Assembly (NCBI RefSeq): GCF_016863475.1
Contig: NZ_BOOY01000042.1
Span: 1-64,000, forward strand
Origin: Spirilliplanes yamanashiensis
GTDB taxonomy: Bacteria; Actinomycetota; Actinomycetes; Mycobacteriales; Micromonosporaceae
Direction of reading: 5' to 3'
Length of the DNA stretch: 64,000 nucleotides
Below are positions 16,922 to 55,754 of the stretch, one piece after another; the stretch's first letter is position 1, and each line of letters opens with the position of its first letter. Position numbers and translations under genes: made by a program. The notes beneath the pieces are model-generated. The model saw only the letters and a program-made list of their open reading frames with translations, searched no databases and was not told where the DNA came from.

Positions 16922-16926
16922 GTCTG

Positions 16927-20091: not shown

Positions 20092-20092
20092 G

Positions 20093-20953: not shown

Positions 20954-21137
20954 CGGTGTCTCCTCCGCCTTGTCACGGGCCAGGGAAAACCGTAGCCGGA
21001 CGACGCGCGGACTCTATCACCGGGCGCAATCGATCACTTGTCGTGCGGCAACTAACATCGCCGTGGCAGATGATCCTCCCCGTCCGGCGGTGGACGGCCG
21101 CCGTGGAGTACCTTTCTCGATGACAGGAGGTCGTCCG

Positions 21138-21491: not shown

Positions 21492-21597
21492 GGCCGGGCC
21501 CTCCCCCTGCGCGGCCCGTTCGGCATAGTTTGTCGTCGACCGGTCGAGGGAACCGCGGTGCTCGCCCTCGATCCCCACGGCTCTCGCAGGAGTGCAG

Positions 21598-22041
21598 ATG
21601 CTCAAAGGCTTCAAAGACTTCATCATGCGCGGCAACGTCGTCGACCTGGCGGTCGGTGTCGTCATCGGCGCGGCGTTCACAGCGGTCGTCACCGGCTTCA
21701 CCAACGCGTTCCTCAAGCCGCTGATCCAGCTGCTGGGCGGCGGCACGGGCGTCGGTGCGGGCTCGTGGGACGTCGACGGCGTCAAGTTCGACTACGCCAC
21801 CTTCATCAACGCCGTGATCACCTTCCTGCTCACCGCCGCGGTGATCTACTTCCTCGTCGTCTACCCGCTGAACCGGCTCGCCGAGCGCCGCAAGCGCGGC
21901 GAGGAGCCGCCGCCCTCCGCGCCCAGCGAGGAGGTCAAGCTGCTCACCGAGATCCGCGACGCGCTCGTCGGCGCCCAGCTGTCCGGCGACCGCCGGTCCG
22001 CCCTCGACGACGTGCTGAACCGGGAACGCCGCGAGCAGTAG
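21598..22041 (+). CDS. mscL: Large-conductance mechanosensitive channel MscL
   Basis: 147 aa. The N-terminal helix and first membrane segment (GFKDFIMRGNVVDLAVGVVIGAAFTAVV) are the MscL signature. The second membrane segment is FINAVITFLLTAAVIYFLVV, followed by a charged cytoplasmic helix bundle. Start ATG 21598 with AGGAG 5 nt upstream; the GTG at 21592 overlaps that site and is rejected. Releases solutes on hypo-osmotic shock. Its place beside stress-signalling genes fits an osmotic theme, but it has its own upstream region. Confidence 0.95.
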   Translation: MLKGFKDFIMRGNVVDLAVGVVIGAAFTAVVTGFTNAFLKPLIQLLGGGTGVGAGSWDVDGVKFDYATFINAVITFLLTAAVIYFLVVYPLNRLAERRKRGEEPPPSAPSEEVKLLTEIRDALVGAQLSGDRRSALDDVLNRERREQ

Positions 22042-22066
22042 AAACGTCGCCGTGCCCCGCACCCGT

Positions 22067-22089
22067 TCGAACACATGTTCGATTAGAGT
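22067..22089 (+). promoter_or_regulatory. Perfect LexA (SOS) box overlapping a leaderless promoter
   Basis: TCGAACACATGTTCGA (22067-22082) is a perfect match to the Gram-positive/actinobacterial SOS box TCGAAC-N4-GTTCGA. It is followed after 1 bp by a -10 TAGAGT (22084-22089), then exactly 7 nt and the ATG at 22097. LexA bound here would cover the -35 region and touch the -10, so DNA-damage induction of the next gene is predicted. Confidence 0.8.
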
Positions 22090-22096
22090 GCGGGGC

Positions 22097-22330
22097 ATGG
22101 AACAGCGCAAGCACTGGTGGAACGGCAAGTGGGGCCGCGCGGTCCGCAAGGACGTCTACCTGCGGACCAACGGCGATCAGTGGTACGTCGAGCAGCGCGC
22201 CGGCGGCGCGGACGGCGTCTCCCACTTCTTCGAGTACGACAGCGAGGACGCCGCCCTCGACACCGTCCGCGCGCTGCTCGTCGGCGCCGACGACTGGCGG
22301 GAGCTGAGCCCCCGCCCGCCGGGCGTCTGA
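22097..22330 (+). CDS. Small protein of unknown function under a LexA box
   Basis: 77 aa, soluble, rich in Trp and charged residues (WWNGKWGRAVRKDVYL; DQWYVEQRAGG; HFFEYDSEDAALDTVRALL). The C-terminal half resembles a small alpha/beta fold, but no family is recognised. No Shine-Dalgarno sequence; the mRNA is predicted to begin at the ATG. The perfect SOS box just upstream marks it as a DNA-damage-inducible gene, so it could act in damage signalling, repair or inhibition of division; none of these is shown. It is monocistronic, as the next gene starts 53 bp later with its own leader. Confidence 0.85.
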   Translation: MEQRKHWWNGKWGRAVRKDVYLRTNGDQWYVEQRAGGADGVSHFFEYDSEDAALDTVRALLVGADDWRELSPRPPGV

Positions 22331-22383
22331 CGCGCCCCGCCGGGACATGTGTAGCCGTCCGCCGGACGGGGAACGCCGGGATC

Positions 22384-22728
22384 ATGCATCCGCACACCTC
22401 GAACGTTCCGGGCATGCCCACCGAGCCCGACCCCCTGGCGCAGGTCAACGACGGGATGACCGTGTTCGACGTCGCCGGGGAGAAGGTCGGCACCGTCACC
22501 GCCGTCCAGACGCCGGGCACCGACGTCCGGCCCGAGCTGGTCGCCGGCCAGGCCGAGGGCTACATGGCCGACGGCTACCTGCGCGTCGACACCAGCGGCG
22601 TGCTCAGCGCCGACGCGTACGTCTCCGGCAGCGAGATCGCCGACGTCAGCGAGGTCGACGGCGGCGTCGTCACCCTGCGCGTCCCGAAGGAGCAGCTGCC
22701 CCGCGCGGGCCAGGGCGGCACGCCCTGA
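22384..22728 (+). CDS. PRC-barrel-like / DUF2171-type small protein
   Basis: 114 aa. The core VNDGMTVFDVAGEKVGTVTAV and the later YLRVDTSGVL and ADAYVSGSEIADV correspond to PRC-barrel-like beta strands found in DUF2171-type stress proteins of actinobacteria and deinococci. No signal peptide or membrane helix. ATG 22384 has GGGGA about 11 nt upstream; ATG 22414 would give 104 aa. Converges on the zf-HC2 gene with 16 bp between. Role unknown; PRC barrels often mediate protein or RNA contacts. Confidence 0.75.
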   Translation: MHPHTSNVPGMPTEPDPLAQVNDGMTVFDVAGEKVGTVTAVQTPGTDVRPELVAGQAEGYMADGYLRVDTSGVLSADAYVSGSEIADVSEVDGGVVTLRVPKEQLPRAGQGGTP

Positions 22729-22744
22729 CCTGCCCGTAGCGGCG

Positions 22745-23551
22745 TCACGCCGCCCGGCGCGGCGCGCGGGGCGACCCCGGTGCGGGGTGGCCGGCGCGGG
22801 CCGTCGCGGGCGGCGGCCCGCCGGGCAGCAGCCGCAGGCGCGGGCCGGGCTGCGGCTCCGGGGCCGCCTCGTGCTCGTCCGGGAACGTCGCGCGCCACGG
22901 CGCCGGCTCGCCGAGCCCGTCGCGCGGGTCCGCCGGGCCGGCCGGGCGCCGGTTGAGCGCCACCACCAGGGCGTAGCCCGCCAGCACGAAACCGTGGCTG
23001 ACCAGGCGCTGCACGTCCACCCGGCCGGTCGTGAGGTCGTTGAGCGACAGCAGCACCAGCATCGCCACGAACGCCGTCAGCATCGGCACCAGGCCGGTCG
23101 GGCGGCTGCGCCGCAGCGCGACGAGCAGGAAGCCCGCGCCCAGCGCCACGTTCCACGCGGCCGACTCGTGCCACAGGTGACCCGCGGTCGCCGTGAGGCC
23201 GGCGCCCGCGTGCGAGTGCGCGCCCGTCGTACCCCCGCCGACCTGGGCCAGGCCCAGGACCAGCTGGACGGCCCCGACCAGGCCGAGCGCCGCGTAGAGG
23301 GCGGTCACCAGGCGGCGCGGGCGCCGCGGCGCCGCCGCCGGCGGCAGCGCGGCCAGGATCGCCGCGCTCAGGTCCGGCGGCGTGACCGCCGGCCCGGTCC
23401 GGGTGAGCCGGTTGACGGCCGCCGCCCGGTCCAGCCACTGCCGGCAGTCCGCGCAGCCGGCCAGGTGCGCGTCGACGTCGTCCCGGCGGGCCGGGTCGTC
23501 CTCGCCGTCGAGCTGCGCCGACAGCAGATCACGCCAGTCATCACACCGCAT
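22745..23551 (-). CDS. zf-HC2 domain integral membrane protein (anti-sigma-like)
   Basis: 268 aa. Residues 1-45 form a zf-HC2 zinc finger: Cys3 and the H-x3-C-x2-C core in DAHLAGCADCRQW. Five or six hydrophobic helices follow (for example LVTALYAALGLVGAVQLVL, WNVALGAGFLLVALR, LVPMLTAFVAMLVLLSL, HGFVLAGYALVVAL), then a Pro-rich cytoplasmic tail. This architecture is common in actinobacterial anti-sigma factors that sit in the membrane, but no sigma gene is next to it, so any partner is encoded elsewhere. Transcribed divergently from the ABC exporter. Confidence 0.8.
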   Translation of the reverse strand: MRCDDWRDLLSAQLDGEDDPARRDDVDAHLAGCADCRQWLDRAAAVNRLTRTGPAVTPPDLSAAILAALPPAAAPRRPRRLVTALYAALGLVGAVQLVLGLAQVGGGTTGAHSHAGAGLTATAGHLWHESAAWNVALGAGFLLVALRRSRPTGLVPMLTAFVAMLVLLSLNDLTTGRVDVQRLVSHGFVLAGYALVVALNRRPAGPADPRDGLGEPAPWRATFPDEHEAAPEPQPGPRLRLLPGGPPPATARAGHPAPGSPRAPRRAA

Positions 23552-23664
23552 GGTCCTATGGTCGCGCGGCGGGCCCCGCTGGTTCCCGCCGGTAAACCGC
23601 TTGTCTTGTCGTACCCCGGTTGCAGAATGAGGGCGTCCTGTCGGCTACGGAAGGCGCTGTGGCG

Positions 23665-24641
<977 letters not shown>

Positions 24642-24645
<4 letters not shown>

Positions 24646-25484
24646 GCACCGTCGCGGACAACACCACCGTCACCGAGGCGCCCGTCGCCGACCTCACCAA
24701 CGTGCTGGCGCGCGGGCCCCGCCCCAAGCGCCCCAGCGCCTGGTCCGCGTCCGTCACGTTCGGCTGGCGCGCCGTGCTGAAGATCAAGCACGTCCCCGAG
24801 CAGCTGTTCGACGTGACGGCGTTCCCGATCATCATGGTGCTGCTGTTCACGTACCTGTTCGGCGGCGCGCTCGCCGGCTCGCCGCGCGAGTACATCCAGT
24901 TCCTGCTGCCCGGCATCATGGTGACCAGCGTCGTCATGATCACCATGTACACGGGCGTCGGCGTCAACACCGACATCGAGAAGGGCGTCTTCGACCGCTT
25001 CCGCACCCTGCCCGTGTGGCGCCCCGCGGCCCTGGTCGGCGCCATCTTCGGCGACATGCTGCGCTACGCCATCGCGTCGCTGGTCATCCTCGGCATCGGC
25101 CTGGCCCTCGGCTTCCGCCCCGCCGGCGGCGTCCTCGGGGTGGCGGCCGGCATCGCCCTGCTCATCCTGTTCTCGTTCGCGTTCTCGTGGATCTGGACGA
25201 TGTTCGGCCTGCTGCTGCGCTCGGAGAAGTCCGTGATGGGCGTCAGCATGCTGGTCATCTTCCCGCTGACGTTCCTCAGCAACGTGTACGTGCAGCCCAG
25301 CACCATGCCCGACGTGCTGGAGGCCTTCGTCCAGGCGAACCCCGTCACCCGGCTGGTCACCGCCGTGCGCACGCTCATGGACGGCGGCTGGAACACCGGC
25401 GAGGTGCTGTGGGTTGTGGTGGCCAGCGCTGTTCTCGTGGCCGTCTTCGGCACGCTGACCATGCGCCTGTACAACCGCCGCTGA
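24642..25484 (+). CDS. DrrB-type ABC-2 transporter permease
   Basis: 280 aa from GTG 24642, overlapping the ATPase stop by 4 bp. An N-terminal cytosolic segment of about 55 residues is followed by six membrane helices in the ABC-2 pattern ([105 protein letters not shown]). The YLFGGAL and the [13 protein letters not shown] loop are DrrB hallmarks. Substrate unknown; no biosynthetic genes are adjacent, so a general drug or lipid efflux role is likely. Confidence 0.93.
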
Positions 25485-33121: not shown

Positions 33122-33730
33122 TCAGAGGCCGAAGGTGGGGTCCGCCGAGCCGGGGGCGCGCAGCATCGCCGTCACCTGCGCGCACGTGCCGCCCGGGCAG
33201 TCCCGCGACGGCCAGGTCACCGCCACCACCACCCGGTACAGGTGGACGCGGCCGGCCCGCTGGTCCGCCGGCACGACCACGCAGTCGCCGCCGGACGCCG
33301 GTCGCCAGCACTCGCCGACGTACCAGGACTGCCGGAACTTCGTCGGGGCGCCGCCCACCAGCACCGGCTGCGGGCTCGTGGGCAGGGACAGCGCCGCCGC
33401 CGGGCCGCCGGTCGCCGCCGGGTCCTGCCAGACCAGGGCCGTCTTCGCCGGGTCCAGGTACGCGTCCACGCCGGGCGCCCGCACCTGCTGGCGGACGGCC
33501 TGCTCGGTGCGGCCCGCCAGCAGCGCCGCGCCGGTCAGCAGGCTCACCCGCTCCATGCCGCTCACCGCCAGCTGCGTGGCCGCCTGCGCGTCGGCCTGCC
33601 GCCGGGTGGCGGCCGTGGAGGCCAGGTAGAACAGGGTCAGCGCGGCCAGCACGGTGGCCAGGATGCCCAGCGAAACCAGGGTCTCCAGCAGGGTGTGGCC
33701 GTCGTCGTCGCGGCCCGGCCGGGCCCTCAC
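33122..33730 (-). CDS. Pseudopilin-like protein, cassette A gene 3
   Basis: 202 aa from GTG 33730, overlapping the previous stop by 4 bp. N-terminus has a prepilin peptidase motif: short charged leader ending DDDG, then HTLLETLVSLGILATVLAAL with Glu at +5. The remainder is an exported domain with four conserved Cys (GECWRPASGGDCVVVP; RDCPGGTC). It is about half identical by eye to cassette B gene 3 (55146), including GGAPTKF, WYVG-x-CW and GGDCVVVPA-x-QR. Likely a minor pilin or pseudopilin displayed on the cell surface. Assembly machinery is not in the window. Confidence 0.8.
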   Translation of the reverse strand: MRARPGRDDDGHTLLETLVSLGILATVLAALTLFYLASTAATRRQADAQAATQLAVSGMERVSLLTGAALLAGRTEQAVRQQVRAPGVDAYLDPAKTALVWQDPAATGGPAAALSLPTSPQPVLVGGAPTKFRQSWYVGECWRPASGGDCVVVPADQRAGRVHLYRVVVAVTWPSRDCPGGTCAQVTAMLRAPGSADPTFGL

Positions 33731-35220
33731 CGCTCGCCGATCCCGGCGAACCGGGGCGCGGACGACTCCGGCTCGGCGTTCCACTTCTGCCGGTGGTCGC
33801 CGCCGCACGGGGCGATGCCGGCCTTGTCGGCCGTGCCGTCCCAGATCGGCTCGACCGGCGTCAGGCACCAGCCCGCCCACGGGCCGGTCCCCTCGATCCG
33901 GTACGCCTCGTCGTACGTCGAGGTGTCCGCCCCGCGCACCAGCCACGTCATGTCGGCGCCCGGGAACGCCGGCGTGCACGGCCGCGCGTCCGCCGCGAGC
34001 ACGCCGCCCTGCAGCGGCGGCAGGGTCAGGCAGTACGGGCCCTTCGGGGTGTCCGACCACAGCGGCCCGGTGCCGTCGGCCGGCAGCTGCCACTGCTGGT
34101 TCCAGTCCCGCACCGTCGGGTCCGGCGTCTGCTTGCACGGGAACAGCACCTCGAACGGCAGGTCCGGGTCCTCCAGCTGCACGTCCAGGCAGCGCCCGTA
34201 CTTGCCGAAGTTGACCAGCTGCCTCGTGACCGGCAGCACCGCCGCGGCCGCGCCCACCTCCGGCGCCGGGTCCCACGTGTGGTGCGGGCCCTTGAGGCGC
34301 TCGTTGCACCGGTACGTGCCGAGGCCCAGGCTGTCGGCCATGTCGTTCAGCACCAGCCGGGTGCCCGCGGCGTTGCCCTGCTCCCGGGCGAAGCACTTGT
34401 CGTTGGTGGTGACGCCGTCGTCGGTGCCCACGTACGAGGCCGCGAAGTTGAAGCTCCACTGCTGCCGGGGCAGCGTCGTCGCGCCGCACGCCTGGAGCGT
34501 CACGACGTTGCCCACCGCCTGCGGCCAGCCCGCGTCCAGGCACAGGTCCGCGCCGACCAGCGACAGCGTCACGTTCGGCTGGTAGGCGAACGTCTGCCGG
34601 GCCACGGGCCCGCCGTCCGGGTCCGTCGCGCACGGCTGCATCCGGACCACCGTGCCCGCCATCGGCGCCGGGCCCGCGTCGAGGCACAGGCCGACCCCGG
34701 CGAGGCCGCGGATGTCGCCGCCGCTGACGTTGCCGCTCATCGCCGTCTTGAACCGGTACGTGCCGTACAGCCGCCGCCGGTGCGTGCCGCCGGGAGCGAT
34801 GCCGGTGGCCTCCACGTACGCGAACCGCGGCACCGCACCCAGCAGCGCCGCGCACGGCCGCCCGGCCGCGCGCGCCCACGCCGCGTCGTGGCCCGTCGGG
34901 TCCTGCGTCAGGTACGTGATCGTCGCCTCGTACCGCACGTCGCCGCCCACCACCGACCCGGTGAGCTGCGGCACCCCGGCCGGGCCGCACGGCAGGCCGT
35001 CGACCAGCCCGACGCCGTCGGCGTCCTGCGCGGCGCGGATCCCGGCCAGCGCGTCGTCCAGCCCGCTGCGGGCGGCGAGCAGCGCCGCCGCCCGGCCGCG
35101 CTCCGTGCGGGTCGTCGAGATCGACTGCAGCACGGTCGTGGACAGCAGCAGGCTGATGCCCACCCCGACGACGGTCAGCAGCATCGCCAGGGGCATCGAG
35201 CCGCGGTCCGTGGCCCTCAC
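33727..35220 (-). CDS. Membrane-anchored ricin-trefoil protein (PilX-like N-terminus), cassette A gene 2
   Basis: 497 aa from GTG 35220, overlapping the previous stop (GTGA). Residues 8-40 form one membrane helix preceded by the conserved motif RGSMPLAML; the helix and following AAALLAARSGLDDAL resemble PilX-type minor pilins. The exported part has repeated ricin-type beta-trefoil signatures: LCLDAG, QxW motifs (PRQQWSF, NQQWQLP, RQKWNAE) and paired Cys. The C-terminal DEAYRIEGTGPWAGWCL is shared with the cassette B counterpart. Probable surface lectin carried by a pilus-like structure. Ligand unknown. Confidence 0.8.
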   Translation of the reverse strand: MRATDRGSMPLAMLLTVVGVGISLLLSTTVLQSISTTRTERGRAAALLAARSGLDDALAGIRAAQDADGVGLVDGLPCGPAGVPQLTGSVVGGDVRYEATITYLTQDPTGHDAAWARAAGRPCAALLGAVPRFAYVEATGIAPGGTHRRRLYGTYRFKTAMSGNVSGGDIRGLAGVGLCLDAGPAPMAGTVVRMQPCATDPDGGPVARQTFAYQPNVTLSLVGADLCLDAGWPQAVGNVVTLQACGATTLPRQQWSFNFAASYVGTDDGVTTNDKCFAREQGNAAGTRLVLNDMADSLGLGTYRCNERLKGPHHTWDPAPEVGAAAAVLPVTRQLVNFGKYGRCLDVQLEDPDLPFEVLFPCKQTPDPTVRDWNQQWQLPADGTGPLWSDTPKGPYCLTLPPLQGGVLAADARPCTPAFPGADMTWLVRGADTSTYDEAYRIEGTGPWAGWCLTPVEPIWDGTADKAGIAPCGGDHRQKWNAEPESSAPRFAGIGER

Positions 35221-35867
35221 GAGCGCACCAGGTCGCCGCACACGTCGTCGCCGGTGCCGGCGGACGTGTTCAGCGCCGTGAACGTGAACGCGGCCGGCCG
35301 GCTCGCCGGGGCCCCGCGGGATCCGGCGGCCAGGGTGAGCGTCACGGTGAGCTGCTGGTGCCGGGCCCCGCCGGCCGTCGCCGGGGTGCGCGCGAAGTCC
35401 CGCGGCCCGGACAGGAACGACGCCAGCGTGCGCCACGACCCGACCGGCCCGCCGCCGCGCCGGCCGCGGCTCTCCAGCCGGCCCGTGGCGTCCGCCATCC
35501 GCAGCTGGGTGCACGACGGCACGCCGGCCGTGGTGGCCGAGTACTCCACGTACCAGGCGCCGGCGGCCCGGCCGGGAGGGCTGATGCCGTCCGCGTACCG
35601 GATCTCGCGGTCGAGGCGCTGGAACGCGGCGTGCAGCTGCGCTTGCGCGACCGCCAGCCGCTCGTTGCTGTCGGCGCTCGCCCGCATCTGCAGCATCCCA
35701 CCGGTGAACAGGGCCCCCACCAGGCTCACCACCACCAGCACGACGACGAGCTCGACGAGGGCCGCACCCTCGTCGTCGCGCGGCGGGCGCGACGGGGCGG
35801 GCGCCGCCGGAACCCGCTGAGCCCGTCGCCTCACGTCCGGTACTTCGGCCGTGGTGGCCCCGGCCAT
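35217..35867 (-). CDS. Pseudopilin-like protein, cassette A gene 1
   Basis: About 216 aa from ATG 35867 (a TTG at 35873 and a GTG at 35834 are also in frame; no strong ribosome site decides). A charged leader ends RDDEG, followed by AALVELVVVLVVVSLVGALF with Glu at the +5 region, a prepilin-type N-terminus. The exported domain shares FQRLDREIRYA-x-GI, WRTLAS, HQQLTV and FTALNT with cassette B gene 1. Ten bp after the GAF histidine kinase stop, so the two may be co-transcribed. Confidence 0.78.
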   Translation of the reverse strand: MAGATTAEVPDVRRRAQRVPAAPAPSRPPRDDEGAALVELVVVLVVVSLVGALFTGGMLQMRASADSNERLAVAQAQLHAAFQRLDREIRYADGISPPGRAAGAWYVEYSATTAGVPSCTQLRMADATGRLESRGRRGGGPVGSWRTLASFLSGPRDFARTPATAGGARHQQLTVTLTLAAGSRGAPASRPAAFTFTALNTSAGTGDDVCGDLVRS

Positions 35868-35877
35868 GAGCAATCGG

Positions 35878-42607: not shown

Positions 42608-45319
42608 TCAGCGGGCGGTGCCGCTGGCCCACAGCGGGCTGCGGGCGTGGTGGTAGATGACCAGGTTGCCGTCGTCCTGCATGGACAGGTACGGGGCGAT
42701 CCGGTTCGCGCCCCAGCTGCCCGACGCCCACACCGGCTGGCCCGCGTCGGTGTAGAGGACGAGGTTGCCGTCGGGCTGCAGGTCGGCGCGGGTCGGGCGG
42801 CGGTCGGCCGGCAGGTTCCAGGTGCCGGTGGCCCAGATCGGGTTCTGCTGCGGCGGGCCGTCGTACAGGACCAGGTTGCCGTCGGGCTGCATGAGCAGCG
42901 TGTAGCGGCCGTTCGGCGAGACCAGGCGCTGGTTGGCGGTCAGCCGCTGGCCGGCCTGGAGCTGGTTCGCCGCCCCGCCGGACGGGGGCTGGGCGTCGGC
43001 GGCGGTGCCCCACGCCGACGGGCTGCCGCCCAGCGTGTGGGCGAGGGTGCCGCCGCGGGCGAGCGCGTCCCAGCCGAGCCAGGACCGGGTCACCGGGGCG
43101 CCGCCCAGCGTCACCGACTGGATGTAGCGGACGGTGTCGGTGGCGCCGGGGGCGTTGATCGTCAGCGTGCCGCCCTGGCCGTTGGTGTGGCCGCCGATGC
43201 GCACCTGCGCCGAGGGGAACTGCGGGCTGGACAGGGCGAAGAAGTTGCCGCCGGCGGTGGTCGGGTAGAGGCCGAGCGAGGAGAAGACGTACCAGGCGGA
43301 CATGGTGCCGAGGTCGTCGTTGCCGGTCATGCCGTCCGGGCCGGTGGTGAACAGGGTCATCGCGGCGCGTACGACCGTGGCGGTCTTCGCGGGGGCGCCG
43401 GCCCAGTGGTACATGTACGGCGCGAGCAGGTCGGGCTCGTTGTTGGGGTTGTAGGTGGGCTTGCCGTAGTAGTCGTACGGCTGGGTGATCCACGCGGACC
43501 GGGCGGTGCCCGCCGGGTCGGTGAGCAGCCGGTCGTAGGCGAAGAACGCGTCCAGCCGCTGCTGGGTGGCGGCCCGCCCGCCCATGAGGGCGACCAGCCC
43601 GGCCGGGTCCTGCGGCACCAGCCACTGGTACTGGTAGGCGCCGCCCTCGTGGAACTGCCGGTCGGCGGCCACCGGGTCGTACGGGGTGAGCCAGCCGCCG
43701 TCGGTGGTGCGGGGCCGGAAGTGCCTGGTGCCGGTGTCCCACAGGGTGCGGTACCACTGGCCGCGCGCGGCGAACAGCTGCGCGTCGGCGGTGCGGCCGA
43801 GGGCGCCCGCCATCACGGCCAGGGCGGCGTCGGCGAGCGCGTACTCCATCGTCGCCGAGGCCGGGTGGGCGCAGTCGTTGTCGCCGCCCTTGTGCGCGCA
43901 GTCGGTGCCGACCCGCAGCCCGGACGGGATGTAGCCGCGGCTGAGGTAGTGGGCGACGCCGCTGCGGCCGTTGAACGGCGAGGACGCGGGCGGGGTGCTG
44001 GTGGCGTTGCGGCGCATCAGCTCGTACGCCTCGGTCTCGTACCCGGCGAGCAGGCCCTTCGACCAGGCCTCGACGAGGAACGGGGTGACCGGGTCGCCGG
44101 TCATGATGTTGGTCTCGCTGTTGACGAGCGCCCACCGGGGCAGCCAGCCGCCGTCGCGGCCGATCGCCACGACGGACAGTGCCACGTCCCGGGCGACCTG
44201 CGGGTACAGCACCTGGAGCAGCTGCTGGTGCGGGCGGTACGTGTCCCAGAGGGAGAAGTTCTGGTACGGGGTGTAGCCGTTCGCGGTGTGCACCTGCCGG
44301 TCGAAGCCGATGTACCGGCCGTCGACGTCGCCGGCCAGGTTGGGGTGCAGCAGCGAGTGGTAGAGGGCGGTGTAGAACGCGGTCTGCCGCTGCTCGGAGC
44401 CGCCGGTGACCCGCACCGCGTCGAGGTGCTGCCGCCAGGTCTCGCGCAGCCGGTCGCGGGTGGCGCCGAAGTCGTAGGAGCTGCCGGTCTCGGCCGCCAG
44501 GTTGCGCCGGGCGCCGTCGACACCGGTGTACGACAGGCCGACCTTGACGACGACGTCCCGGTCGCCGGTGGCGTCGAACGTGACCCAGGCGCCGTTGCCG
44601 CCGGCGCCGGCGGCGTCGCGGCCGCCGGGCGTCAGGGTGGTGTCGCGCCAGGTGCCGTGGGCCCGGAACGGCCGGTCGAACGTGGCGCTGAAGTACACGG
44701 TGTGCCGGTCCTGCCCGGCGCAGAAGTTGCCGGCCTCGACCCGCCCCTCGACGGTGCGGTCGCCGACGACGTGCACCTCCGAGCTGAACACCCGCTGGTT
44801 GGCCTTGCCGGTGTTGAACAGCACGTTGGCGGCGTTCGTCGCCGGGAACGTGTACCGCTGCCAGCCGGTGCGGGCGGTGGCGGTCAGCTCGGCGTTCACC
44901 CCGTAGCGGGACAGCCCGACGCGGTAGTAGCCGGGCTCGGCGTCCTCGTCGTCGTGCGAGAACGCCGACCGGTAGGCGGTGTGGTCGCCGCTGGTGACGG
45001 CGCCGGTGGTGGGCATGATCGGCAACTCACCGGCGACCTCGCAGCCGACCCCGGACAGGTGGGTCTGGCTGAAGCCGTGGATGGCGTTCTGCTGGTAGTC
45101 GTAGCCGCCCTGGCCGCCGGTGTCGGGGCTGACCTGGACCATGCCGAACGGGGCGGTGGCGCCGGGGAACGTGTTGCCGAAGTTCTGCGTGCCGACGAAC
45201 GGGTTGACCAGGGCCGACGGTTCGGCGGCGGCGGCCGGGGCGGCGGGGGTCACCACCAGCGACCCGGCGATCAGCAGCGCGGCGGTGGCCGCGCGCCTGC
45301 AGAAACGAGCACCGAGCAT
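42608..45319 (-). CDS. Secreted GH92 alpha-mannosidase with bulb-type lectin domain
   Basis: 903 aa. Sec signal peptide with cleavage after AAA near residue 32. Residues about 35-770 are a GH92 exo-alpha-mannosidase (VNPFVGTQNFGNTFPGA, SLWDTYRPHQQL, GNDDLGTMSAWYVFSSLG), a calcium-dependent inverting enzyme. After a GWDALARGGTL-type linker, residues about 790-903 form a bulb-lectin (B_lectin) domain with three mannose-binding Q-x-D-x-N-x-V-x-Y motifs: QPDGNLVLY twice and QDDGNLVIY. The lectin probably holds the enzyme on mannans. AGGAG 6 nt before ATG 45319. A GTGCA-N6-TGCAC palindrome upstream suggests sugar-responsive control. Confidence 0.95.
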   Translation of the reverse strand: MLGARFCRRAATAALLIAGSLVVTPAAPAAAAEPSALVNPFVGTQNFGNTFPGATAPFGMVQVSPDTGGQGGYDYQQNAIHGFSQTHLSGVGCEVAGELPIMPTTGAVTSGDHTAYRSAFSHDDEDAEPGYYRVGLSRYGVNAELTATARTGWQRYTFPATNAANVLFNTGKANQRVFSSEVHVVGDRTVEGRVEAGNFCAGQDRHTVYFSATFDRPFRAHGTWRDTTLTPGGRDAAGAGGNGAWVTFDATGDRDVVVKVGLSYTGVDGARRNLAAETGSSYDFGATRDRLRETWRQHLDAVRVTGGSEQRQTAFYTALYHSLLHPNLAGDVDGRYIGFDRQVHTANGYTPYQNFSLWDTYRPHQQLLQVLYPQVARDVALSVVAIGRDGGWLPRWALVNSETNIMTGDPVTPFLVEAWSKGLLAGYETEAYELMRRNATSTPPASSPFNGRSGVAHYLSRGYIPSGLRVGTDCAHKGGDNDCAHPASATMEYALADAALAVMAGALGRTADAQLFAARGQWYRTLWDTGTRHFRPRTTDGGWLTPYDPVAADRQFHEGGAYQYQWLVPQDPAGLVALMGGRAATQQRLDAFFAYDRLLTDPAGTARSAWITQPYDYYGKPTYNPNNEPDLLAPYMYHWAGAPAKTATVVRAAMTLFTTGPDGMTGNDDLGTMSAWYVFSSLGLYPTTAGGNFFALSSPQFPSAQVRIGGHTNGQGGTLTINAPGATDTVRYIQSVTLGGAPVTRSWLGWDALARGGTLAHTLGGSPSAWGTAADAQPPSGGAANQLQAGQRLTANQRLVSPNGRYTLLMQPDGNLVLYDGPPQQNPIWATGTWNLPADRRPTRADLQPDGNLVLYTDAGQPVWASGSWGANRIAPYLSMQDDGNLVIYHHARSPLWASGTAR

Positions 45320-45351
45320 GGCAGTCTCCTCGCGCGGCCGGCGTCACCGGT

Positions 45352-45367
45352 GTGCAATGAACTGCAC
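45352..45367 (-). promoter_or_regulatory. Inverted-repeat operator candidate upstream of the GH92 gene
   Basis: GTGCA-ATGAAC-TGCAC, a perfect 5-6-5 inverted repeat about 33 bp upstream of the mannosidase ATG, in the leader or promoter. A TTGACT (45393-45388 on minus) lies further upstream as a -35 candidate. The regulator is not in the window. Confidence 0.4.
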
Positions 45368-45442
45368 GCTGACACGTAACATTTAAGCGAGTCAATAGTC
45401 GACGGTCCTGAGTGGCCGGTCGGGCAGCCAACGGGGGTTTGG

Positions 45443-46039
45443 ATGCCGGGGACGGTCCTGCTCGACCGCGCCGTCTTCGTGTCGTACGCGACGGCCCGGG
45501 CCAACCCGGGCGACGACGCCGGCCACGAGCCGGACCGGTACTGGCGCGGCCAGGCCAACGGGCTGTGCGGCGCCGCCGTCCGCGGCCACCTCGTGCTGGT
45601 GACCGGCCTGCACACCGGGTACGTGCGGATGACGGTCGAGCTGCACCCGGCGGAGCCGCCGCTCGGCGACGAGTGGGAGGACGCCGTCGAGGCCCCGTTC
45701 CGGCAGCGCGCCAAGAAGCTGTGGGTCGGCGGCCTGATGGACCGGACGTACCCGGCGAGGCTGCCGCCCGGCGACTACCGGGTGCGCTACTGCGCCCGCG
45801 GCATGGAGCAGGGCCGGCGCCAGGACACCGCGGGCAGGGACGAGATCGTCGACGCGTACCTGCTGCAGTTCTGGCCGGCGGACCCGGCGCCGGACCGGGT
45901 CGTCCGGCAGACCACCGACATCGCCGCCCGCTACCACGCCAAACCCCGGAAACCCGCACCCACCGCGGCGGAGCGGGCGGAACGCAAGCTGCGCAAGGCG
46001 GAGCGCCGCCGCCGCAAGGCCGCGGCACGGCCGCGATGA
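45443..46039 (+). CDS. Hypothetical protein
   Basis: 198 aa, no recognised family. No signal peptide or membrane helix. The core (VFVSYATARANPGDDAG, ANGLCGAAVRGHLVLVTGLHTGYVRMTVELH, RLPPGDYRVRYCARGMEQGRR, YLLQFWPADPAPDRVVRQTT) reads as an all-beta domain. The last 35 residues are strongly basic and helical (AERAERKLRKAERRRRKAAARPR), suggesting nucleic-acid or membrane contact. Divergent from the GH92 gene and translationally coupled to a 32-codon ORF by an ATGA overlap. Confidence 0.7.
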   Translation: MPGTVLLDRAVFVSYATARANPGDDAGHEPDRYWRGQANGLCGAAVRGHLVLVTGLHTGYVRMTVELHPAEPPLGDEWEDAVEAPFRQRAKKLWVGGLMDRTYPARLPPGDYRVRYCARGMEQGRRQDTAGRDEIVDAYLLQFWPADPAPDRVVRQTTDIAARYHAKPRKPAPTAAERAERKLRKAERRRRKAAARPR

Positions 46040-46134
46040 ACGCCCTGTGGGCGGCGGCCGGCGCCCACGGCGAGGACGGGTACCGGCAGTTCTTCGCCGA
46101 CCTGCGCGCGGCGTTCCCACGGCTGGGGCGCTGA
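46036..46134 (+). CDS. Small ORF (32 aa) coupled to the preceding gene
   Basis: ATG 46036 overlaps the stop of the previous gene (ATGA) and the frame ends at TGA 46132-46134. Product begins MNALWAAAGAHGEDGYRQFF, continues ADLRAAFPRLGR and is an amphipathic-helix-like peptide. The tight coupling and protein-like composition favour translation. Alternatively it is the tail of a larger domain split by a frameshift in the preceding gene. No family recognised. Confidence 0.4.
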   Translation: MNALWAAAGAHGEDGYRQFFADLRAAFPRLGR

Positions 46135-46219
46135 CGGCCCTGCCGCCGTGCCCTTTCGGGCGGGCGTGGCGATGGCACGATGCGGGCCGACCGCCCGGGC
46201 AGCGCGGGCCGCCGAAGGG

Positions 46220-46819
46220 ATGCCGGAGTTGTACGAGGAGCGGGTTCGGTTCACGCCAACGGTCGTCCTGGCGATCGGGTTCTTCCTGGTCGTCGCCGTG
46301 GTCTGGGCGGCGCTGTTCGGCACCGACCCGGCCATGCGCGGCGACGCCGAGGGCTGGGCCGTCATCCTCGTGCCGGTCGCCGTGTTCGGCGGGGTGGGCG
46401 TCGCGATCCTCGCCGACGTCCTGCGCCACCCGCTCGCCCTGCGGGTCGACGGTCACGGCGTGACCCTGGGCCGCTCGGCCGGGCTCGTCTCCCACCACGG
46501 GTGGGCGTGGCGCACCCCGCAGGTCACCGTGCCGTGGGAGGACACCGACGCCGTGGTGCTCTACCGGGTCGGGACCTCGAACGGGTCGTCGATGGCGTAC
46601 GTCGGGCTGCGCTTGCGGGCCGGGGCGGCGCTCCCGTCCGGGGAGCCGTCGGAGCGGGGGTTCTGGCCCCGGCTGGGCCGGCTGCTCGGCTCCGACGAGG
46701 CGCCCTGCGGCGTGGCGGTGTACCGGCAGGTGTTCGGCTGGCGCATCGACGAGAAGCGCCTGAAGCGGCACGTCCGGCAGCGCACCCGCGGGCGGGTCGA
46801 GGTTCTCGGGGGGTTGTGA
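46220..46819 (+). CDS. Two-helix membrane protein of unknown function
   Basis: 199 aa from ATG 46220 (TTG 46229 with AAGGGA 9 nt upstream is equally possible; frames extending to 46148 look non-coding). Two membrane helices, TPTVVLAIGFFLVVAVVWAALFG and WAVILVPVAVFGGVGVAILADVL, are followed by a cytoplasmic beta-rich domain (LALRVDGHGVTLGRS, VTVPWEDTDAVVLY, SMAYVGLRLRAG) reminiscent of bacterial PH/YcxB-like domains, and a basic end. Function unknown. Lone gene. Confidence 0.7.
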   Translation: MPELYEERVRFTPTVVLAIGFFLVVAVVWAALFGTDPAMRGDAEGWAVILVPVAVFGGVGVAILADVLRHPLALRVDGHGVTLGRSAGLVSHHGWAWRTPQVTVPWEDTDAVVLYRVGTSNGSSMAYVGLRLRAGAALPSGEPSERGFWPRLGRLLGSDEAPCGVAVYRQVFGWRIDEKRLKRHVRQRTRGRVEVLGGL

Positions 46820-46889
46820 CGGTCACGTCCGCGCCGGGGGTCCGGGCGGGGGCAGTCGTCTCAGGTTGCCCCCGCGGATGCCGACAGCA

Positions 46890-46908
46890 CGTCGAGCACA
46901 ACTCGACG
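46890..46908 (+). promoter_or_regulatory. Inverted repeat before the glycosyltransferase pair
   Basis: CGTCGAG-CACAA-CTCGACG, a perfect 7-5-7 repeat ending 13 bp before ATG 46922 and touching the GAGAGG ribosome site. It could be an operator or an mRNA hairpin that controls translation. Confidence 0.4.
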
Positions 46909-46921
46909 AGAGGCCCCCGCG

Positions 46922-47911
46922 ATGATGGACGACCGCACGACGCCGCCCGACGCGGCCCGCCCCGAGCGCCGCAAGGCCCCGCAGACGGCGGGTCCCCGCG
47001 ACCGCCGCAGCACGCCCCGGGGTGCCCCCCGGCGGGCGCCGCGGGTCAGCGTGGTCATCCCGACCCTCAACGAGGCCCGGAACCTGCCGCACGTGTTCGG
47101 CGCGCTGCCGGACGGGCTGCACGAGGTCGTCCTGGTCGACGGCGGCTCGACCGACGACACCGTCGAGGTCGCCCGCCGGCTGCGGCCCGACGTGGTGGTC
47201 GTGCGCCAGACGCGTACGGGCAAGGGCAACGCCCTGGCCAGCGGGTTCGACGCCTGCACCGGCGACGCCATCGTGATGATCGACGCGGACGGCTCGACCG
47301 ACCCGGCCGAGATCACGAAGTTCGTGGAGACCCTGGTCGCCGGCGCCGAGTTCGCCAAGGGCTCGCGCTTCGGCGAGGGCGGCCACAGCAAGGACATCAC
47401 CCCGTTGCGCCGGGTCGGCAACGAAGGGCTGAACCTGATCGTCAACAAGCTCTTCACGACCAAGTTCACCGACCTCTGCTACGGCTACAACGCCTTCTGG
47501 CGTCGCGTCGTGCCCGTGATGGACCTGCCCTCCACCGACCTGGCGCCCGGGCCCGACGGCAAGAAGCTGTGGGGCGACGGCTTCGAGATCGAGACCCTGA
47601 TCAACATCCGGGTGGCGAGCAGCGGGATGCGGGTGAAGGAGGTCTCCAGCATCGAGCACCTGCGCATCCACGGCACCAGCAACCTGAACACCTTCCGCGA
47701 CGGCACGCGGGTGCTGCGCACCATCCTGAGCGAGTTCCACCGCCGCGCCGTGCGGCGCCGGGCCGCCGCCAAGGCCGCCGCGCCGTCGAAGCGGCGGACG
47801 GTCAGCAAGACCGTGCCGGTGCTCGCCGTTCCGGGCGGCAAGTGGTTCGGCCGGGTGGACGCCCTGCTCACCGCCGAGAAGAAGGCCACGGAGAAGGCGG
47901 AGGCGGCCTGA
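46922..47911 (+). CDS. GT2-family glycosyltransferase (polyprenyl-phosphate sugar transferase type)
   Basis: 329 aa. A basic, disordered N-terminus of about 40 residues precedes a GT-A domain: VSVVIPTLNEARNLPHVF, VLVDGGSTDDTVEVAR, TGKGNALASGF, VMIDADGSTDP (DxD-type metal site), KGSRFGEGG. Resembles dolichol-phosphate mannosyltransferase-like enzymes without membrane helices. The C-terminus is basic (RRAVRRRAAAKAAAP). GAGAGG 8 nt before ATG 46922. Overlaps the next glycosyltransferase by 1 bp, so the two probably build one glycan. Confidence 0.9.
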   Translation: MMDDRTTPPDAARPERRKAPQTAGPRDRRSTPRGAPRRAPRVSVVIPTLNEARNLPHVFGALPDGLHEVVLVDGGSTDDTVEVARRLRPDVVVVRQTRTGKGNALASGFDACTGDAIVMIDADGSTDPAEITKFVETLVAGAEFAKGSRFGEGGHSKDITPLRRVGNEGLNLIVNKLFTTKFTDLCYGYNAFWRRVVPVMDLPSTDLAPGPDGKKLWGDGFEIETLINIRVASSGMRVKEVSSIEHLRIHGTSNLNTFRDGTRVLRTILSEFHRRAVRRRAAAKAAAPSKRRTVSKTVPVLAVPGGKWFGRVDALLTAEKKATEKAEAA

Positions 47912-48888: not shown

Positions 48889-48895
48889 CGGGACG

Positions 48896-48912
48896 GCCGG
48901 CCGCCGGCCGGC
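48896..48912. terminator. Hairpin between convergent genes
   Basis: GCCGGCC-GCC-GGCCGGC, a perfect 7-3-7 stem-loop filling the 24-bp gap between two convergent stop codons. No T tract. Confidence 0.6.
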
Positions 48913-52990: not shown

Positions 52991-53593
52991 ATGAACGAGC
53001 CGCGCGCGCCCCGCCTGCGCCTCGCCGGTGACGGCGGCATGACCCTGATCGAGACCCTGGTCGCGATGACGGTCATGACGCTCGTCGGCGCGCTGGCGCT
53101 CGCGGGGATCGTGCAGCTGCGCCGCACGACGGCCTCCGTCGGCGACCTGTCGGCCGTGTCGTCGGGCCTGCACGTGACGTTCCAGCGGCTGGACCGCGAG
53201 ATCCGGTACGCGTACGGCATCACCGAGCCGGCCACGGGCCTGTCGCCGGCCGGCTACCGCTACGTCGAGTACGAGCTGCACGCCGACGGGGTGCGGCGGT
53301 GCACCCAGCTGCGCGTCGGCGGCTCGCCGGGCACCTTCCAGGCCCGGTCGAGGGACGGCGCGGCCGCGGCCGGGGGGTGGCGGACCCTCGCGTCCGGCGT
53401 CGGCGCCGGCGCCCGGTTCACCCGCCGGGACGCCACCACGAGCGGGTCCCCGCACCAGCAGCTCACCGTCAACCTGGCCGTCGCGGCGGGTGGCGCCGCC
53501 GCCCGCTCCGGCGAGTACACCTTCACCGCGCTGAACACCCACACCGGCACAGCGACCGAGCAGCCGGTGTGCGCCGGCCTGGGCCGGCCGTGA
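52991..53593 (+). CDS. Pseudopilin-like protein, cassette B gene 1
   Basis: 200 aa. The clearest prepilin motif in the window: leader ending RLAGDGG, then MTLIETLVAMTVMTLVGAL with Glu at +5 and a hydrophobic helix. The exported domain is homologous to cassette A gene 1 (FQRLDREIRYAYGI, CTQLRV, WRTLAS, HQQLTV, FTALNT), with two Cys. GAAGGGA precedes ATG 52991 by about 11 nt. The next gene overlaps by 4 bp. Confidence 0.82.
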   Translation: MNEPRAPRLRLAGDGGMTLIETLVAMTVMTLVGALALAGIVQLRRTTASVGDLSAVSSGLHVTFQRLDREIRYAYGITEPATGLSPAGYRYVEYELHADGVRRCTQLRVGGSPGTFQARSRDGAAAAGGWRTLASGVGAGARFTRRDATTSGSPHQQLTVNLAVAAGGAAARSGEYTFTALNTHTGTATEQPVCAGLGRP

Positions 53594-55149
53594 CCGGGCG
53601 CCGCGCCGGCGACGAGGGGTCGATGCCGCTGGCGATGCTGATCGTCATCGTCGGCGCCGGGCTCGGCCTGCTCATGTCGAACGCGCTGCTGGTCAACATC
53701 ACGGAGACCCGGACGAGCAGCGGGCGCGCGGCGTCCCTGCTCGCGGCGCGCAGCGGGCTCAGCAGCGCGCTGGGCACCCTGCGGGCCGCCCGGCTGTCCG
53801 GCGGCGGCGGCGACACCGGCGAGCTGCCGTGCCTCCCGGCGGGCGGCCCCGCGGTGACCGGCACCGCCGGTTCCGGGTCGTCGGCGTACGCGGTGACGAT
53901 CCGGTACCTCCTGCTCGACCCCGAGGGGCGCAGCCTGGCCTGGGTGCAGGCGAACAGCCGGCCGTGCGCCGACCAGCTCGCCGCCACGCCCAACTTCGCG
54001 CACCTGACGGCGGTCGGCACCACGGCCGGCGGCAACCGGCGGACGCTGAGCGCCACCTACGTGTTCAAGACGGAGGGCCGGACGAACACCGCCGGCGGCC
54101 GCATCAAGGTCCTCGACGTGGGCGGCACCAACCGGCTGTGCCTCGACGCCGGCAACCTGGCGACCGTCTACTCCGGCATCCCGCTGCGGATGCGGCTGTG
54201 CAACCCGGCGGACTTCGCCCAGCCCGCCGTCCCGCAGCAGCGGTTCGGCTACCAGCCGAACGCCACCATCAACCTGGTCGGCGCGGACCCGGCCCGGTTC
54301 CCGACCGGCCTGTGCGTCGACACGTCCGGCGTAGGCGCGCAGGCGCTCAACCAGAAGCTGGTCCTCAAGCACTGCGCAAGCGGCAGCGGCCTGGCCCGCC
54401 AGCAGTGGTACATCAACACCGCCAGCGGCTTCTTCGGCCCCAACGCCGACCGCACCGGGTTCAACAGCTTCTGCTGGAGCGTCCAGCAGCGCGACACCGA
54501 CGGCAGCGAGATCCTGCTCAACAGCACCAGCGGCGGCGTCACCGGCGGCAACTCCGCCTGCAACACGTCGTTCCCGAACAACTACCAGTCCTGGCACCTC
54601 GACGGCCCGACCGGCTCGGGCCCGGCCGGTCCCGCGACGCGGCAGCTGGTCAACTACGAGACGTTCAGCCGGTGCTTCGACTACGACTCGATCAGCAACA
54701 TCGTCAAGACGTTCCCGTGCAAGGGCCACCCCGACCCCGCCTCGACGAGCTACTGGAACCAGATCTGGTACCTGCCGGAGCCGGGCCAGGCGGCGGGCCC
54801 GGTGTACTACCTGACGACCGGCGGCACCAAGCGGTGCATCGTGGCGCCGCCGAACCCCCACGCCACCGACTCGGAGGACCTGAAGGCCGGCATCGTGGAC
54901 TGCCCGGCCGTGCTCCCCCGCAACATGCTGTTCGTGAACCGGGGCGCGGACACCCCCACGTTCGACGAGGCGTACCGCATCGAGGGCACGGGCACCTGGG
55001 CCGGCACGTGTATGGGCACCCTGGGCAGGCAGGCCGGCGAACAGGGCGTCGTCGTGGGCTTCGAGCCGTGCACCGGCCACGCGGCCCAGAAGTGGAACGC
55101 CGACGCGCGCACGGCCGCCGGCGGCCTGACGGGCGTCGTGGAGCGATGA
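53590..55149 (+). CDS. Membrane-anchored ricin-trefoil protein (PilX-like N-terminus), cassette B gene 2
   Basis: 519 aa from GTG 53590 (GTGA overlap). The N-terminal EGSMPLAML and one membrane helix, then AASLLAARSGLSSALGTL, match cassette A gene 2. The exported portion has ricin-type trefoil signatures: LCLDAGN, ARQQWYIN, NQIWYLP, AQKWNAD, and many Cys. FDEAYRIEGTGTWAGTCM is shared with the paralogue. Probable surface lectin associated with a pilus or pseudopilus; the sugar bound is unknown. Confidence 0.82.
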   Translation: MTGRRAGDEGSMPLAMLIVIVGAGLGLLMSNALLVNITETRTSSGRAASLLAARSGLSSALGTLRAARLSGGGGDTGELPCLPAGGPAVTGTAGSGSSAYAVTIRYLLLDPEGRSLAWVQANSRPCADQLAATPNFAHLTAVGTTAGGNRRTLSATYVFKTEGRTNTAGGRIKVLDVGGTNRLCLDAGNLATVYSGIPLRMRLCNPADFAQPAVPQQRFGYQPNATINLVGADPARFPTGLCVDTSGVGAQALNQKLVLKHCASGSGLARQQWYINTASGFFGPNADRTGFNSFCWSVQQRDTDGSEILLNSTSGGVTGGNSACNTSFPNNYQSWHLDGPTGSGPAGPATRQLVNYETFSRCFDYDSISNIVKTFPCKGHPDPASTSYWNQIWYLPEPGQAAGPVYYLTTGGTKRCIVAPPNPHATDSEDLKAGIVDCPAVLPRNMLFVNRGADTPTFDEAYRIEGTGTWAGTCMGTLGRQAGEQGVVVGFEPCTGHAAQKWNADARTAAGGLTGVVER

Positions 55150-55754
55150 CCCGCCGGCTCGCCCCCGAGCGGGACGGCGACGCGGGCGTCACGCTGCTCG
55201 AAGTCGTCGTCGCCCTCGCCGTCATCGCCGCCGCCCTGGCGTCCCTGCTCGCCTTCTTCGTCCGGGCGGTGGAGACGACCCGCGTGCACACCGACCGGCA
55301 GGCCGCCACCCGCTACGCCGTCGTGGCGATGGAGCGGGTGAGCCTGCTGCCCGGCACCGCCGTGCTCGTCAACCGCCCGCACGCGGCGGTCCAGGCCCAG
55401 TGGAGCCGGTCGCGCCCGCCGCAGGTCGACGCCCTGCTCGCCGCGACCCGCACCGAGATGGCCTGGTCGGCGCAGACGGCCGCCGTCGAGGGACTGCCCA
55501 CCGCGCCGGAGCGGGTCACCGACGGCGGCGCGCCGACGAAGTTCACCCGGCACTGGTACGTCGGCCGGTGCTGGCAGCAGCCCACGGGCGGTGACTGCGT
55601 CGTGGTGCCGGCCGCGCAACGGCCCGCCCGGGTGGCGATGTTCCGCGTGGTCGTCGCGGTGCAGTGGGCGTCGGCCGACTGCGACGGCGGCCAGTGCTTC
55701 CACGTCGAGTCGATGCTCGCCAACGTCGACCGCACCGACCCCGCCTTCGAGTGA
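55146..55754 (+). CDS. Pseudopilin-like protein, cassette B gene 3
   Basis: 202 aa, ATG 55146 overlapping the previous stop (ATGA). Leader ends RDGDAG, then VTLLEVVVALAVIAAALASLLAF, a prepilin-type N-terminus with Glu at +5. The rest parallels cassette A gene 3 in length and motifs (GGAPTKFTRHWYVGRCW, GGDCVVVPAAQRPARV, FRVVVAVQW, GGQC). Last gene of the LamG-pseudopilin operon; the convergent gene ends 12 bp further on. Confidence 0.82.
   Translation: MTRRLAPERDGDAGVTLLEVVVALAVIAAALASLLAFFVRAVETTRVHTDRQAATRYAVVAMERVSLLPGTAVLVNRPHAAVQAQWSRSRPPQVDALLAATRTEMAWSAQTAAVEGLPTAPERVTDGGAPTKFTRHWYVGRCWQQPTGGDCVVVPAAQRPARVAMFRVVVAVQWASADCDGGQCFHVESMLANVDRTDPAFE

What the first reader, a model, noticed from the sequence alone, without database searches (positions are those of the whole stretch)
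33122..35867. Paralogous three-gene pseudopilin / ricin-trefoil / pseudopilin cassettes (copy A)
Seen: three overlapping genes encode a prepilin-like protein, a single-helix protein with GSMPLAML motif and trefoil (QxW) exodomain, and a second prepilin-like protein. The same order, overlaps and motifs recur at 52991-55754, on the other strand. Family knowledge: type IV pilin N-termini (G-x4-E) and PilX/TadE-type minor pilins are assembled by PilB/PilC/PilD-like machines. Inference: a Gram-positive minor-pilin complex that carries a lectin, perhaps for attachment to polysaccharide substrates next to the secreted hydrolases. I know of no described system with this composition.
Basis: partly seen in the sequence, partly recalled or inferred. 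Interest (0 to 1): 0.78.

Follow-up and report, generated by a model that had tools for sequence, protein, structure and literature searches.

The report
Multiplied lectin tips for zoospore pili
This soil actinomycete has one machine for building type IV pili but at least seven differently diverged copies of a sugar-binding-type tip subunit, most in three-gene sets that seem to switch on with the swimming-spore genes, so its spores could carry a choice of "hands" for gripping different surfaces.

Summary
Two paralogous gene triples (copy A 33122-35867, minus strand; copy B 52991-55754, plus strand) encode two prepilins that keep Glu5 (called W and V here) and a middle protein (X). X has a pilin module without Glu5 plus two ricin-type beta-trefoils. 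They belong to a larger set. The genome has one complete type IVa pilus operon (pilB-T-C-A-A2-D-M-N-O-V-W) with no X gene, and seven dispersed X genes, five in V/W/X triples. Among 61 genomes of the family sample, X occurs in exactly the 13 that have both PilT and the flagellar protein FlhA. In most relatives the triple sits at the end of the pil operon. Upstream of five of the seven X loci lies a flagellar-sigma (WhiG/FliA) type promoter sequence, present only 99 times in the 6.5-Mb genome and also found at the flagellar genes. Best reading: interchangeable, lectin-bearing priming/tip complexes of zoospore type IVa pili. Swappable tips (Myxococcus), lectin minor pilins (Streptococcus sanguinis) and zoospore pili (Actinoplanes) are each known. 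The trefoil-fused cap subunit, its detachment and multiplication, and its zoospore-type promoters appear new. Sugar binding, tip location and promoter use are inferred, not shown.

The parts
35217..35834 (-). Copy A, W-like (GspJ/PilW-like) prepilin, G|AALVE with Glu5; likely GTG start at 35834 (ATG at 35867 possible)
   Evidence: start choice inferred from the promoter-like element at 35870-35844
33727..35220 (-). Copy A, X (K/PilX-like tip pilin): pilin module 35220-34741, G|SMPLA without Glu5, then two beta-trefoils about 34719-33727
   Evidence: (Ricin_B_lectin 1.4e-14)
33122..33730 (-). Copy A, V-like (GspI/PilV-like) prepilin, G|HTLLE
35844..35870 (-). WhiG/FliA-type promoter-like element CTCA-N17-GCCGAA just upstream of copy A
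   Evidence: consensus match only, activity not shown
52991..53593 (+). Copy B, W-like prepilin, G|MTLIE
53590..55149 (+). Copy B, X (K/PilX-like tip pilin): pilin module 53590-54084, two beta-trefoils about 54085-55149
55146..55754 (+). Copy B, V-like prepilin, G|VTLLE
   Evidence: (PilV and GspI models, E about 1e-4)

Best explanation
Each triple encodes the priming/tip complex of a type IVa pilus: V (I-like) and W (J-like), which keep Glu5, and X (K-like), which lacks Glu5 and so would cap the filament. X carries two beta-trefoils of ricin type that would sit at the extreme tip and bind a glycan or another surface ligand. PilD would cleave all three after the conserved Gly. The single PilB/PilC/PilM/N/O machine would then extend a PilA pilus under whichever V-W-X set primed it, and PilT would retract it. 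The genome has seven diverged X genes (five in complete triples, two alone) and no X in the core operon, so pili from one machine could bear different tips. A flagellar-type sigma factor probably switches most sets on together with the flagella, so the tips would serve zoospore attachment. Shown by computation: the genes, the paralogy, the absence of Glu5, the trefoil homology, co-occurrence with PilT and FlhA, and the promoter-element enrichment; a pilin-like fold of the X module is supported by a medium-confidence model. Inferred: processing by PilD, tip position, sugar binding, sigma-factor use, interchangeability and the zoospore role.
For: Full T4aP machine in the same genome: PilB-like ATPase, PilT above its cut-off, PilC, two PilA-like pilins, PilD with both A24 domains, PilM, PilN, PilO, plus V and W but no X (X searches find none on contig C36). 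Seven X loci. In most X-positive relatives V-W-X follows pilO inside the pil operon. X is present in exactly the 13 of 61 genomes that have both PilT and FlhA. All 23 aligned X proteins have Gly at the cleavage site and Ala at mature position 5; lack of Glu5 marks M. xanthus PilX (PMC7541494) and K subunits (PMC9934059). The pilin module models as one long helix plus a four-stranded sheet (pLDDT 75); its top VIA-align matches include the modular pilin ComZ (Z 8.2), competence pilin TT_C0855 (7.7), S. sanguinis minor pilin PilA (6.7) and the XcpGHIJK pseudopilus (6.0). An X profile finds ricin-type lectins in PDB over both trefoils, with twelve conserved Cys and the usual Asp in repeats 1, 2 and 4 of most members. 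The promoter element occurs within 250 bp upstream of 5 of 7 X loci against 99 places genome-wide; 5 of the 6 genes carrying it among 230 called genes are cassette first genes, and it recurs at five places in the flagellar cluster and before pilB of several relatives. W, X and V distances correlate (Mantel r 0.65-0.68, p 2e-4), so triples evolve as units.
Against: Pfam finds no pilin signature in X, and the AlphaFold model of full-length X was poor (pLDDT 40, trefoils unfolded). Foldseek alone gave no match below E 0.001 for the pilin module, and Z near 8 is borderline. Copy B has no clear promoter element; C38 and core pilB have it with one mismatch; a looser weight-matrix score separates cassettes from other genes only weakly. 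No H/FimU-like fourth minor pilin was identified. Aromatic sugar-stacking residues of the trefoils were not verified. The co-occurrence sample is phylogenetically clustered (X in 9 of 44 genera).
Confidence: 0.72

Rival explanations
1. The triples build a short pseudopilus for protein secretion (T2SS-like), the trefoils helping to hold or deliver secreted hydrolases such as those encoded near copy B.
For: V and W score against GspI/PilV-type models and PilO also matches a GspM model; secreted GH92, GH88, GH16 and GH43 genes lie near copy B.
Against: The machine has a retraction ATPase PilT, PilM and canonical PilA genes; X tracks PilT and FlhA; the other loci have no such hydrolase neighbours.
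Confidence: 0.07
2. The sets decorate a DNA-uptake (competence) pilus and the trefoil domains bind DNA or the cell wall rather than environmental glycans.
For: The best structural matches of the X pilin module are Thermus competence pilins ComZ and TT_C0855.
Against: The matched part is only the common pilin fold; the exodomains match ricin-type lectins; distribution follows flagella. DNA-uptake genes were not examined.
Confidence: 0.08
3. The genome's second secretion-ATPase system (Tad/Flp-like, contig C23) assembles the cassettes.
For: A second T2SSE ATPase followed by genes that look Tad/Flp-like is present on C23; a Tad pilus with interchangeable tips is known in Myxococcus (PMC12075869).
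Against: W and V have T4aP-type N-methyl signals, and relatives carry V-W-X inside the pilB-T-C-A-D-M-N-O operon.
Confidence: 0.03
4. The sets are pilus tip complexes, but most are redundant or decaying duplicates; one or two are used and the multiplicity has no function.
For: Two X genes lack V and W partners (C39, C9); C39 and C18 X are 88% (pilin module) and 78% (trefoils) identical, a recent duplication.
Against: All seven X frames are open with no internal stop; apart from C39/C18 the copies share at most about 53% and do not form one recent clade, yet keep the cleavage site and twelve Cys; 5 of 7 loci have the promoter element.
Confidence: 0.2

Closest known systems
Myxococcus xanthus T4aP minor pilin/PilY1 clusters 1-3 (PMC7541494)
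   Same: Several FimU-PilV-PilW-PilX sets served by one major pilin and one machine; PilX lacks Glu5; the authors speculate that the clusters give pili tips with different properties
   Different: The adhesin there is the separate protein PilY1; here no PilY1 match was found (control uninformative) and the binding domains are fused to the X subunit; the organism here is an actinomycete (taken to be monoderm); seven X genes
Myxococcus Kil Tad pilus with interchangeable Tips 1-4 (PMC12075869)
   Same: Paralogous three-gene minor pilin sets with variable exodomains serving one pilus
   Different: Tad pilus used in predation; different pilin family and exodomains
Streptococcus sanguinis PilABC tip complex (PMC9934059, PMC8179133)
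   Same: Monoderm T4aP with a lectin-bearing modular minor pilin proposed at the tip
   Different: The lectin module there is concanavalin A-like and there is one set; here ricin-type beta-trefoils sit on a K-like subunit without Glu5, in many copies
Actinoplanes missouriensis zoospore type IV pili (Kimura 2019, as summarised in PMC8325347)
   Same: Flagellated actinomycete; pil and flagellar genes transcribed by WhiG-like sigma factors; pili needed for adhesion to hydrophobic surfaces
   Different: The original paper was not available here, so its treatment of minor pilins is unknown to me; in the present genome X genes are detached from the pil operon and multiplied
Modular pilins, including Actinoplanes examples (survey in PMC8179133)
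   Same: V of relatives carries three to four He_PIG Ig repeats, one of the architectures listed there
   Different: V of this genome lacks them, and X would escape such a survey because it lacks the pilin signature motif

Membership tests
T4aP HIJK / FimU-PilV-PilW-PilX minor pilin tip complex | Class III prepilin signal with Glu5 in V/I and W/J | tested here: met
   N_methyl/TIGR02532/PilV/GspI models; Glu5 seen in W and V of the window, the other own sets and nearly all relatives examined
T4aP HIJK / FimU-PilV-PilW-PilX minor pilin tip complex | K/X subunit lacks Glu5 | tested here: met
   Ala at mature position 5 in 23 of 23 X proteins
Pfam PilX / GspK sequence families | X matches a PilX N-terminal or GspK sequence model | tested here: not met
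   No such match at E 0.1 for either window X; so X is called 'K/PilX-like' and not filed in these families
T4aP HIJK / FimU-PilV-PilW-PilX minor pilin tip complex | Fourth minor pilin H/FimU | tested here: inconclusive
   Not in the triples; a second PilA-like gene in the core operon could play the part
T4aP HIJK / FimU-PilV-PilW-PilX minor pilin tip complex | Location at the pilus tip and need for assembly | not testable with these tools
   Needs mutants, pilus proteomics or cryo-electron tomography
Type IV pilin fold (X N-terminal module) | Long N-terminal helix packed on an antiparallel sheet | tested here: met
   Model H12-71 plus four strands, pLDDT 75; VIA-align pilin matches Z 8.2 to 5.3, borderline strength
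Type IVa pilus machine | PilB, PilT, PilC, PilD, PilM, PilN, PilO, PilA in one genome | tested here: met
Ricin-type beta-trefoil (CBM13) domain | Repeats with QxW/Cys pattern and profile match | tested here: met
   PF00652 1.4e-14 for copy A X and for five other own X; PDB profile hits over both trefoils; 12 conserved Cys. Copy B X alone is below the Pfam cut-offs
Ricin-type beta-trefoil (CBM13) domain | Sugar-binding residues and sugar binding | tested here: inconclusive
   Asp at the usual place in repeats 1, 2, 4 of most members; aromatic residues not checked; no binding data
PilY1 tip adhesin system | PilY1 beta-propeller protein | tested here: inconclusive
   No PF05567 match in the own genome, but no control genome rang either
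WhiG/FliA (flagellar sigma) regulon | Flagellar-type promoter sequence upstream | tested here: met
   5 of 7 X loci by strict pattern; not at copy B; the CTCA form of the -35 box is from memory of Actinoplanes work, the GCCGATAA -10 from PMC8325347; activity not shown

The most novel reading that the evidence does not exclude
A combinatorial adhesion repertoire for dispersing cells: one pilus machine whose core operon has no cap subunit, and seven interchangeable trefoil-lectin caps under zoospore promoters, so that individual zoospores or individual pili of a clone test different glycans before settling.
Probability: 0.3. Interest if true: 0.8.

Novelty: new variant of a known kind. Interest (0 to 1): 0.62.

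Why it matters
How type IV pili choose what to stick to is still poorly understood, above all in Gram-positive bacteria. Here an actinomycete seems to have taken the tip subunit out of its pilus operon and multiplied it into several three-gene sets that differ in their binding domains. If true, it gives a directly testable case of tip swapping in a monoderm T4aP, independent of the Myxococcus cases and without a recognised PilY1 adhesin, and it links tip choice to the swimming spore, the stage at which these filamentous bacteria decide where to settle. It also shows that cap subunits without Glu5 escape surveys that rely on the pilin signature motif.

Tried and rejected
Foldseek with that module gave no significant match; VIA-align gave pilins at Z 5-8. 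The first genome-contig search failed because the seven-row alignment was too diverse; the three-row one found only two named loci. The phylum-wide search (396 genomes) found only the own genome and one weak N-terminal match, but it scored only three candidates per genome, so it does not show true absence outside the family; Planobispora (L065) proves that X occurs elsewhere. A weight matrix for the promoter separated cassettes from other genes less well than the strict pattern: 5% of background genes score at least 14 (copy A 14.0; copy B W 8.7). I considered that the 891-aa LamG protein upstream of copy B belongs to the cassette and rejected it: no homolog lies near any other cassette. The PilY1 search is uninformative because its controls were empty. 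Kimura 2019 and its protocol paper are not in the library, so what I say of them comes from PMC8325347 or is marked as memory. Literature searches for ricin or beta-trefoil together with type IV pilus terms returned no paper.

Full report
OBSERVATION. Translation confirms two triples of overlapping genes: copy A on the minus strand (35867-35217, 35220-33727, 33730-33122) and copy B on the plus strand (52991-53593, 53590-55149, 55146-55754), each with 4-base GTGA/ATGA overlaps. The copies are paralogous gene by gene: 45%, 40% and 49% identity. I call the genes W (first), X (middle) and V (third), by resemblance to PilW/GspJ, PilX/GspK and PilV/GspI.

PROTEINS. W and V are prepilins with Gly, then Glu at mature position 5. 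X begins G|SMPLAM: a cleavage Gly, a hydrophobic helix and no Glu5. In an alignment of 23 X proteins Gly10 is invariant and mature residue 5 is always Ala. No Pfam or NCBIfam pilin model matches X, so its pilin nature needed other evidence. A model of its first 166 residues has one 60-residue helix and a four-stranded sheet (pLDDT 75, pTM 0.64). VIA-align's best matches are the modular competence pilin ComZ (Z 8.2), TT_C0855 (7.7) and S. sanguinis minor pilin PilA (6.7), with the XcpGHIJK pseudopilus at 6.0 and XcpV/W at 5.3. The values are borderline, and trimeric autotransporter fragments also score near 6, but five of the first nine rows are type IV pilins or pseudopilins. Downstream lie six Cys/QxW repeats, that is two beta-trefoils. 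Copy A matches Ricin_B_lectin at 1.4e-14, and the X profile hits ricin-type lectins and a xylan-binding CBM13 over the first trefoil and agglutinin over the second. Twelve Cys are conserved in all or nearly all members with both trefoils, and the Asp next to the first Cys, usual in sugar-binding repeats, is kept in repeats 1, 2 and 4 of most. Two relatives have a single trefoil.

THE WHOLE SET. The genome (6.5 Mb, 59 contigs) has seven X genes: two in the window and one each on C30, C18, C38, C39 and C9. C30 has the same W-X-V order as copies A and B; C18 and C38 have V-W-X; C39 and C9 have X alone. One operon on C36 encodes PilB, PilT, PilC, two PilA-like pilins, PilD, PilM, PilN, PilO, V and W, but no X. 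X from C39 and C18 are recent duplicates; the others are old. X of Mangrovihabitans endophyticus (Micromonosporaceae) falls among the W-X-V group, and its cassette has the same order and overlaps. W, X and V distances across 19 sets correlate at 0.65-0.68, as expected if each set evolves as a unit, although shared species history contributes.

CO-OCCURRENCE. In 61 genomes of the same family, PilT occurs in 18, FlhA in 14 and X in 13; the X-positive genomes are exactly those with both PilT and FlhA. Five genomes with PilT but no FlhA lack X, and one with FlhA but no PilT lacks X. Flagellin gives the same picture. If genomes were independent the chance would be about 1.5e-13, but they are related: X-positive genomes fall in 9 of 44 genera. 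In most of them V-W-X follows pilO inside the pil operon. Two others resemble the present genome: in G028 the core operon ends at pilO and two V-W-X sets lie elsewhere, and in G029 about four sets are scattered. In several relatives V carries three or four He_PIG Ig repeats, perhaps a stalk; the own V proteins are short.

REGULATION. WhiG/FliA-type promoters have a -10 box GCCGATAA (PMC8325347); from memory, the Actinoplanes form is CTCA-N15..17-GCCGAA/T. The strict pattern CTCA-N15..17-GCCGAW occurs 99 times in the genome, against 39 for the reversed control. It lies within 250 bp upstream of, or just over, the first gene at 5 of 7 X loci: copy A, C30, C39, C18 and C9. The expectation is 0.013 (P about 3.5e-12; 7e-10 without copy A, which prompted the test). 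Among 230 genes called in held stretches of the genome six carry it, five of them cassette first genes. As positive controls it appears at five places in the own flagellar cluster, including just before flhA, and before pilB in four relatives and before V in one of these. C38, core pilB and the flgN-flgK operon have near matches; copy B has none. A looser matrix score was less discriminating, so I hold the promoter claim as likely, not proven. PMC8325347 reports that type IV pilus and flagellar genes of A. missouriensis zoospores are transcribed by WhiG-like sigma factors and that the pili serve adhesion to hydrophobic surfaces.

MECHANISM. In T4aP and T2SS, minor pilins H-I-J-K prime assembly and sit at the tip, capped by K, which lacks Glu5 (PMC9934059). 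In M. xanthus three such clusters serve one machine (PMC7541494), and four interchangeable tips serve its Kil Tad pilus (PMC12075869). The simplest reading is the same here: V and W assemble with X as the cap, X presents two trefoils at the tip, PilD processes them, PilB extends and PilT retracts. With no X in the core operon, a complete tip needs an X from elsewhere; the two lone X genes could pair with the core V and W. What each trefoil binds is unknown. The hydrolase genes near copy B may share a substrate, but other loci lack such neighbours, so that link is not supported.

NOVELTY. Known separately: swappable tips, lectin minor pilins, zoospore pili. Not found in the library searched: a trefoil-lectin cap subunit, or a T4aP core operon lacking its cap subunit with seven caps elsewhere. 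I rate it a new variant of a known kind.

Noticed in passing
window 50296-52971: An 891-aa secreted LamG/chitobiase-C/OmpL47-type protein ends 19 bp before copy B on the same strand and may be co-transcribed; its N-terminus looks like a SipW-type export signal (from memory). No homolog lies near any other cassette.
   Followed up: partly
L067 (G000:C1) 280-3063; L094 (G000:C8) 8720-25317: Flagellar genes are split over two contigs. Only one Flagellin_N match, of FlgL type next to FlgK, was found in the own genome, unlike most X-positive relatives, which also have a strong FliC-type match; FliC may lie beyond the edge of contig C1.
   Followed up: partly
L006 (G000:C23) 9678-13155: A second secretion-ATPase gene followed by small genes that look like a Tad/Flp pilus cluster.
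   Followed up: partly
window 42608-62429: A group of secreted glycoside hydrolases, GH92, GH88, GH16 with its own ricin-type lectin domain, and GH43, plus a discoidin-domain protein, surrounds copy B.
   Followed up: partly
L069 12654-14075, L071 6107-7801, L072, L065, L079 6466-8196: The V-like minor pilin of relatives carries three to four He_PIG Ig-like repeats, absent from the V proteins of this genome.
   Followed up: partly
L082 and L083 (G022, G052): In these relatives the pil operon lies within a few kilobases of the flgK/flgL flagellar genes, and X has only one trefoil.
   Followed up: no
G000:C7:77721, C28:34703, C36:92495: Nearly identical copies of one promoter-like element (CTCAGCGACGA-TAGCCGGTGCCGAA type, similar also in L069) suggest it lies inside a repeated coding motif rather than in promoters.
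   Followed up: no
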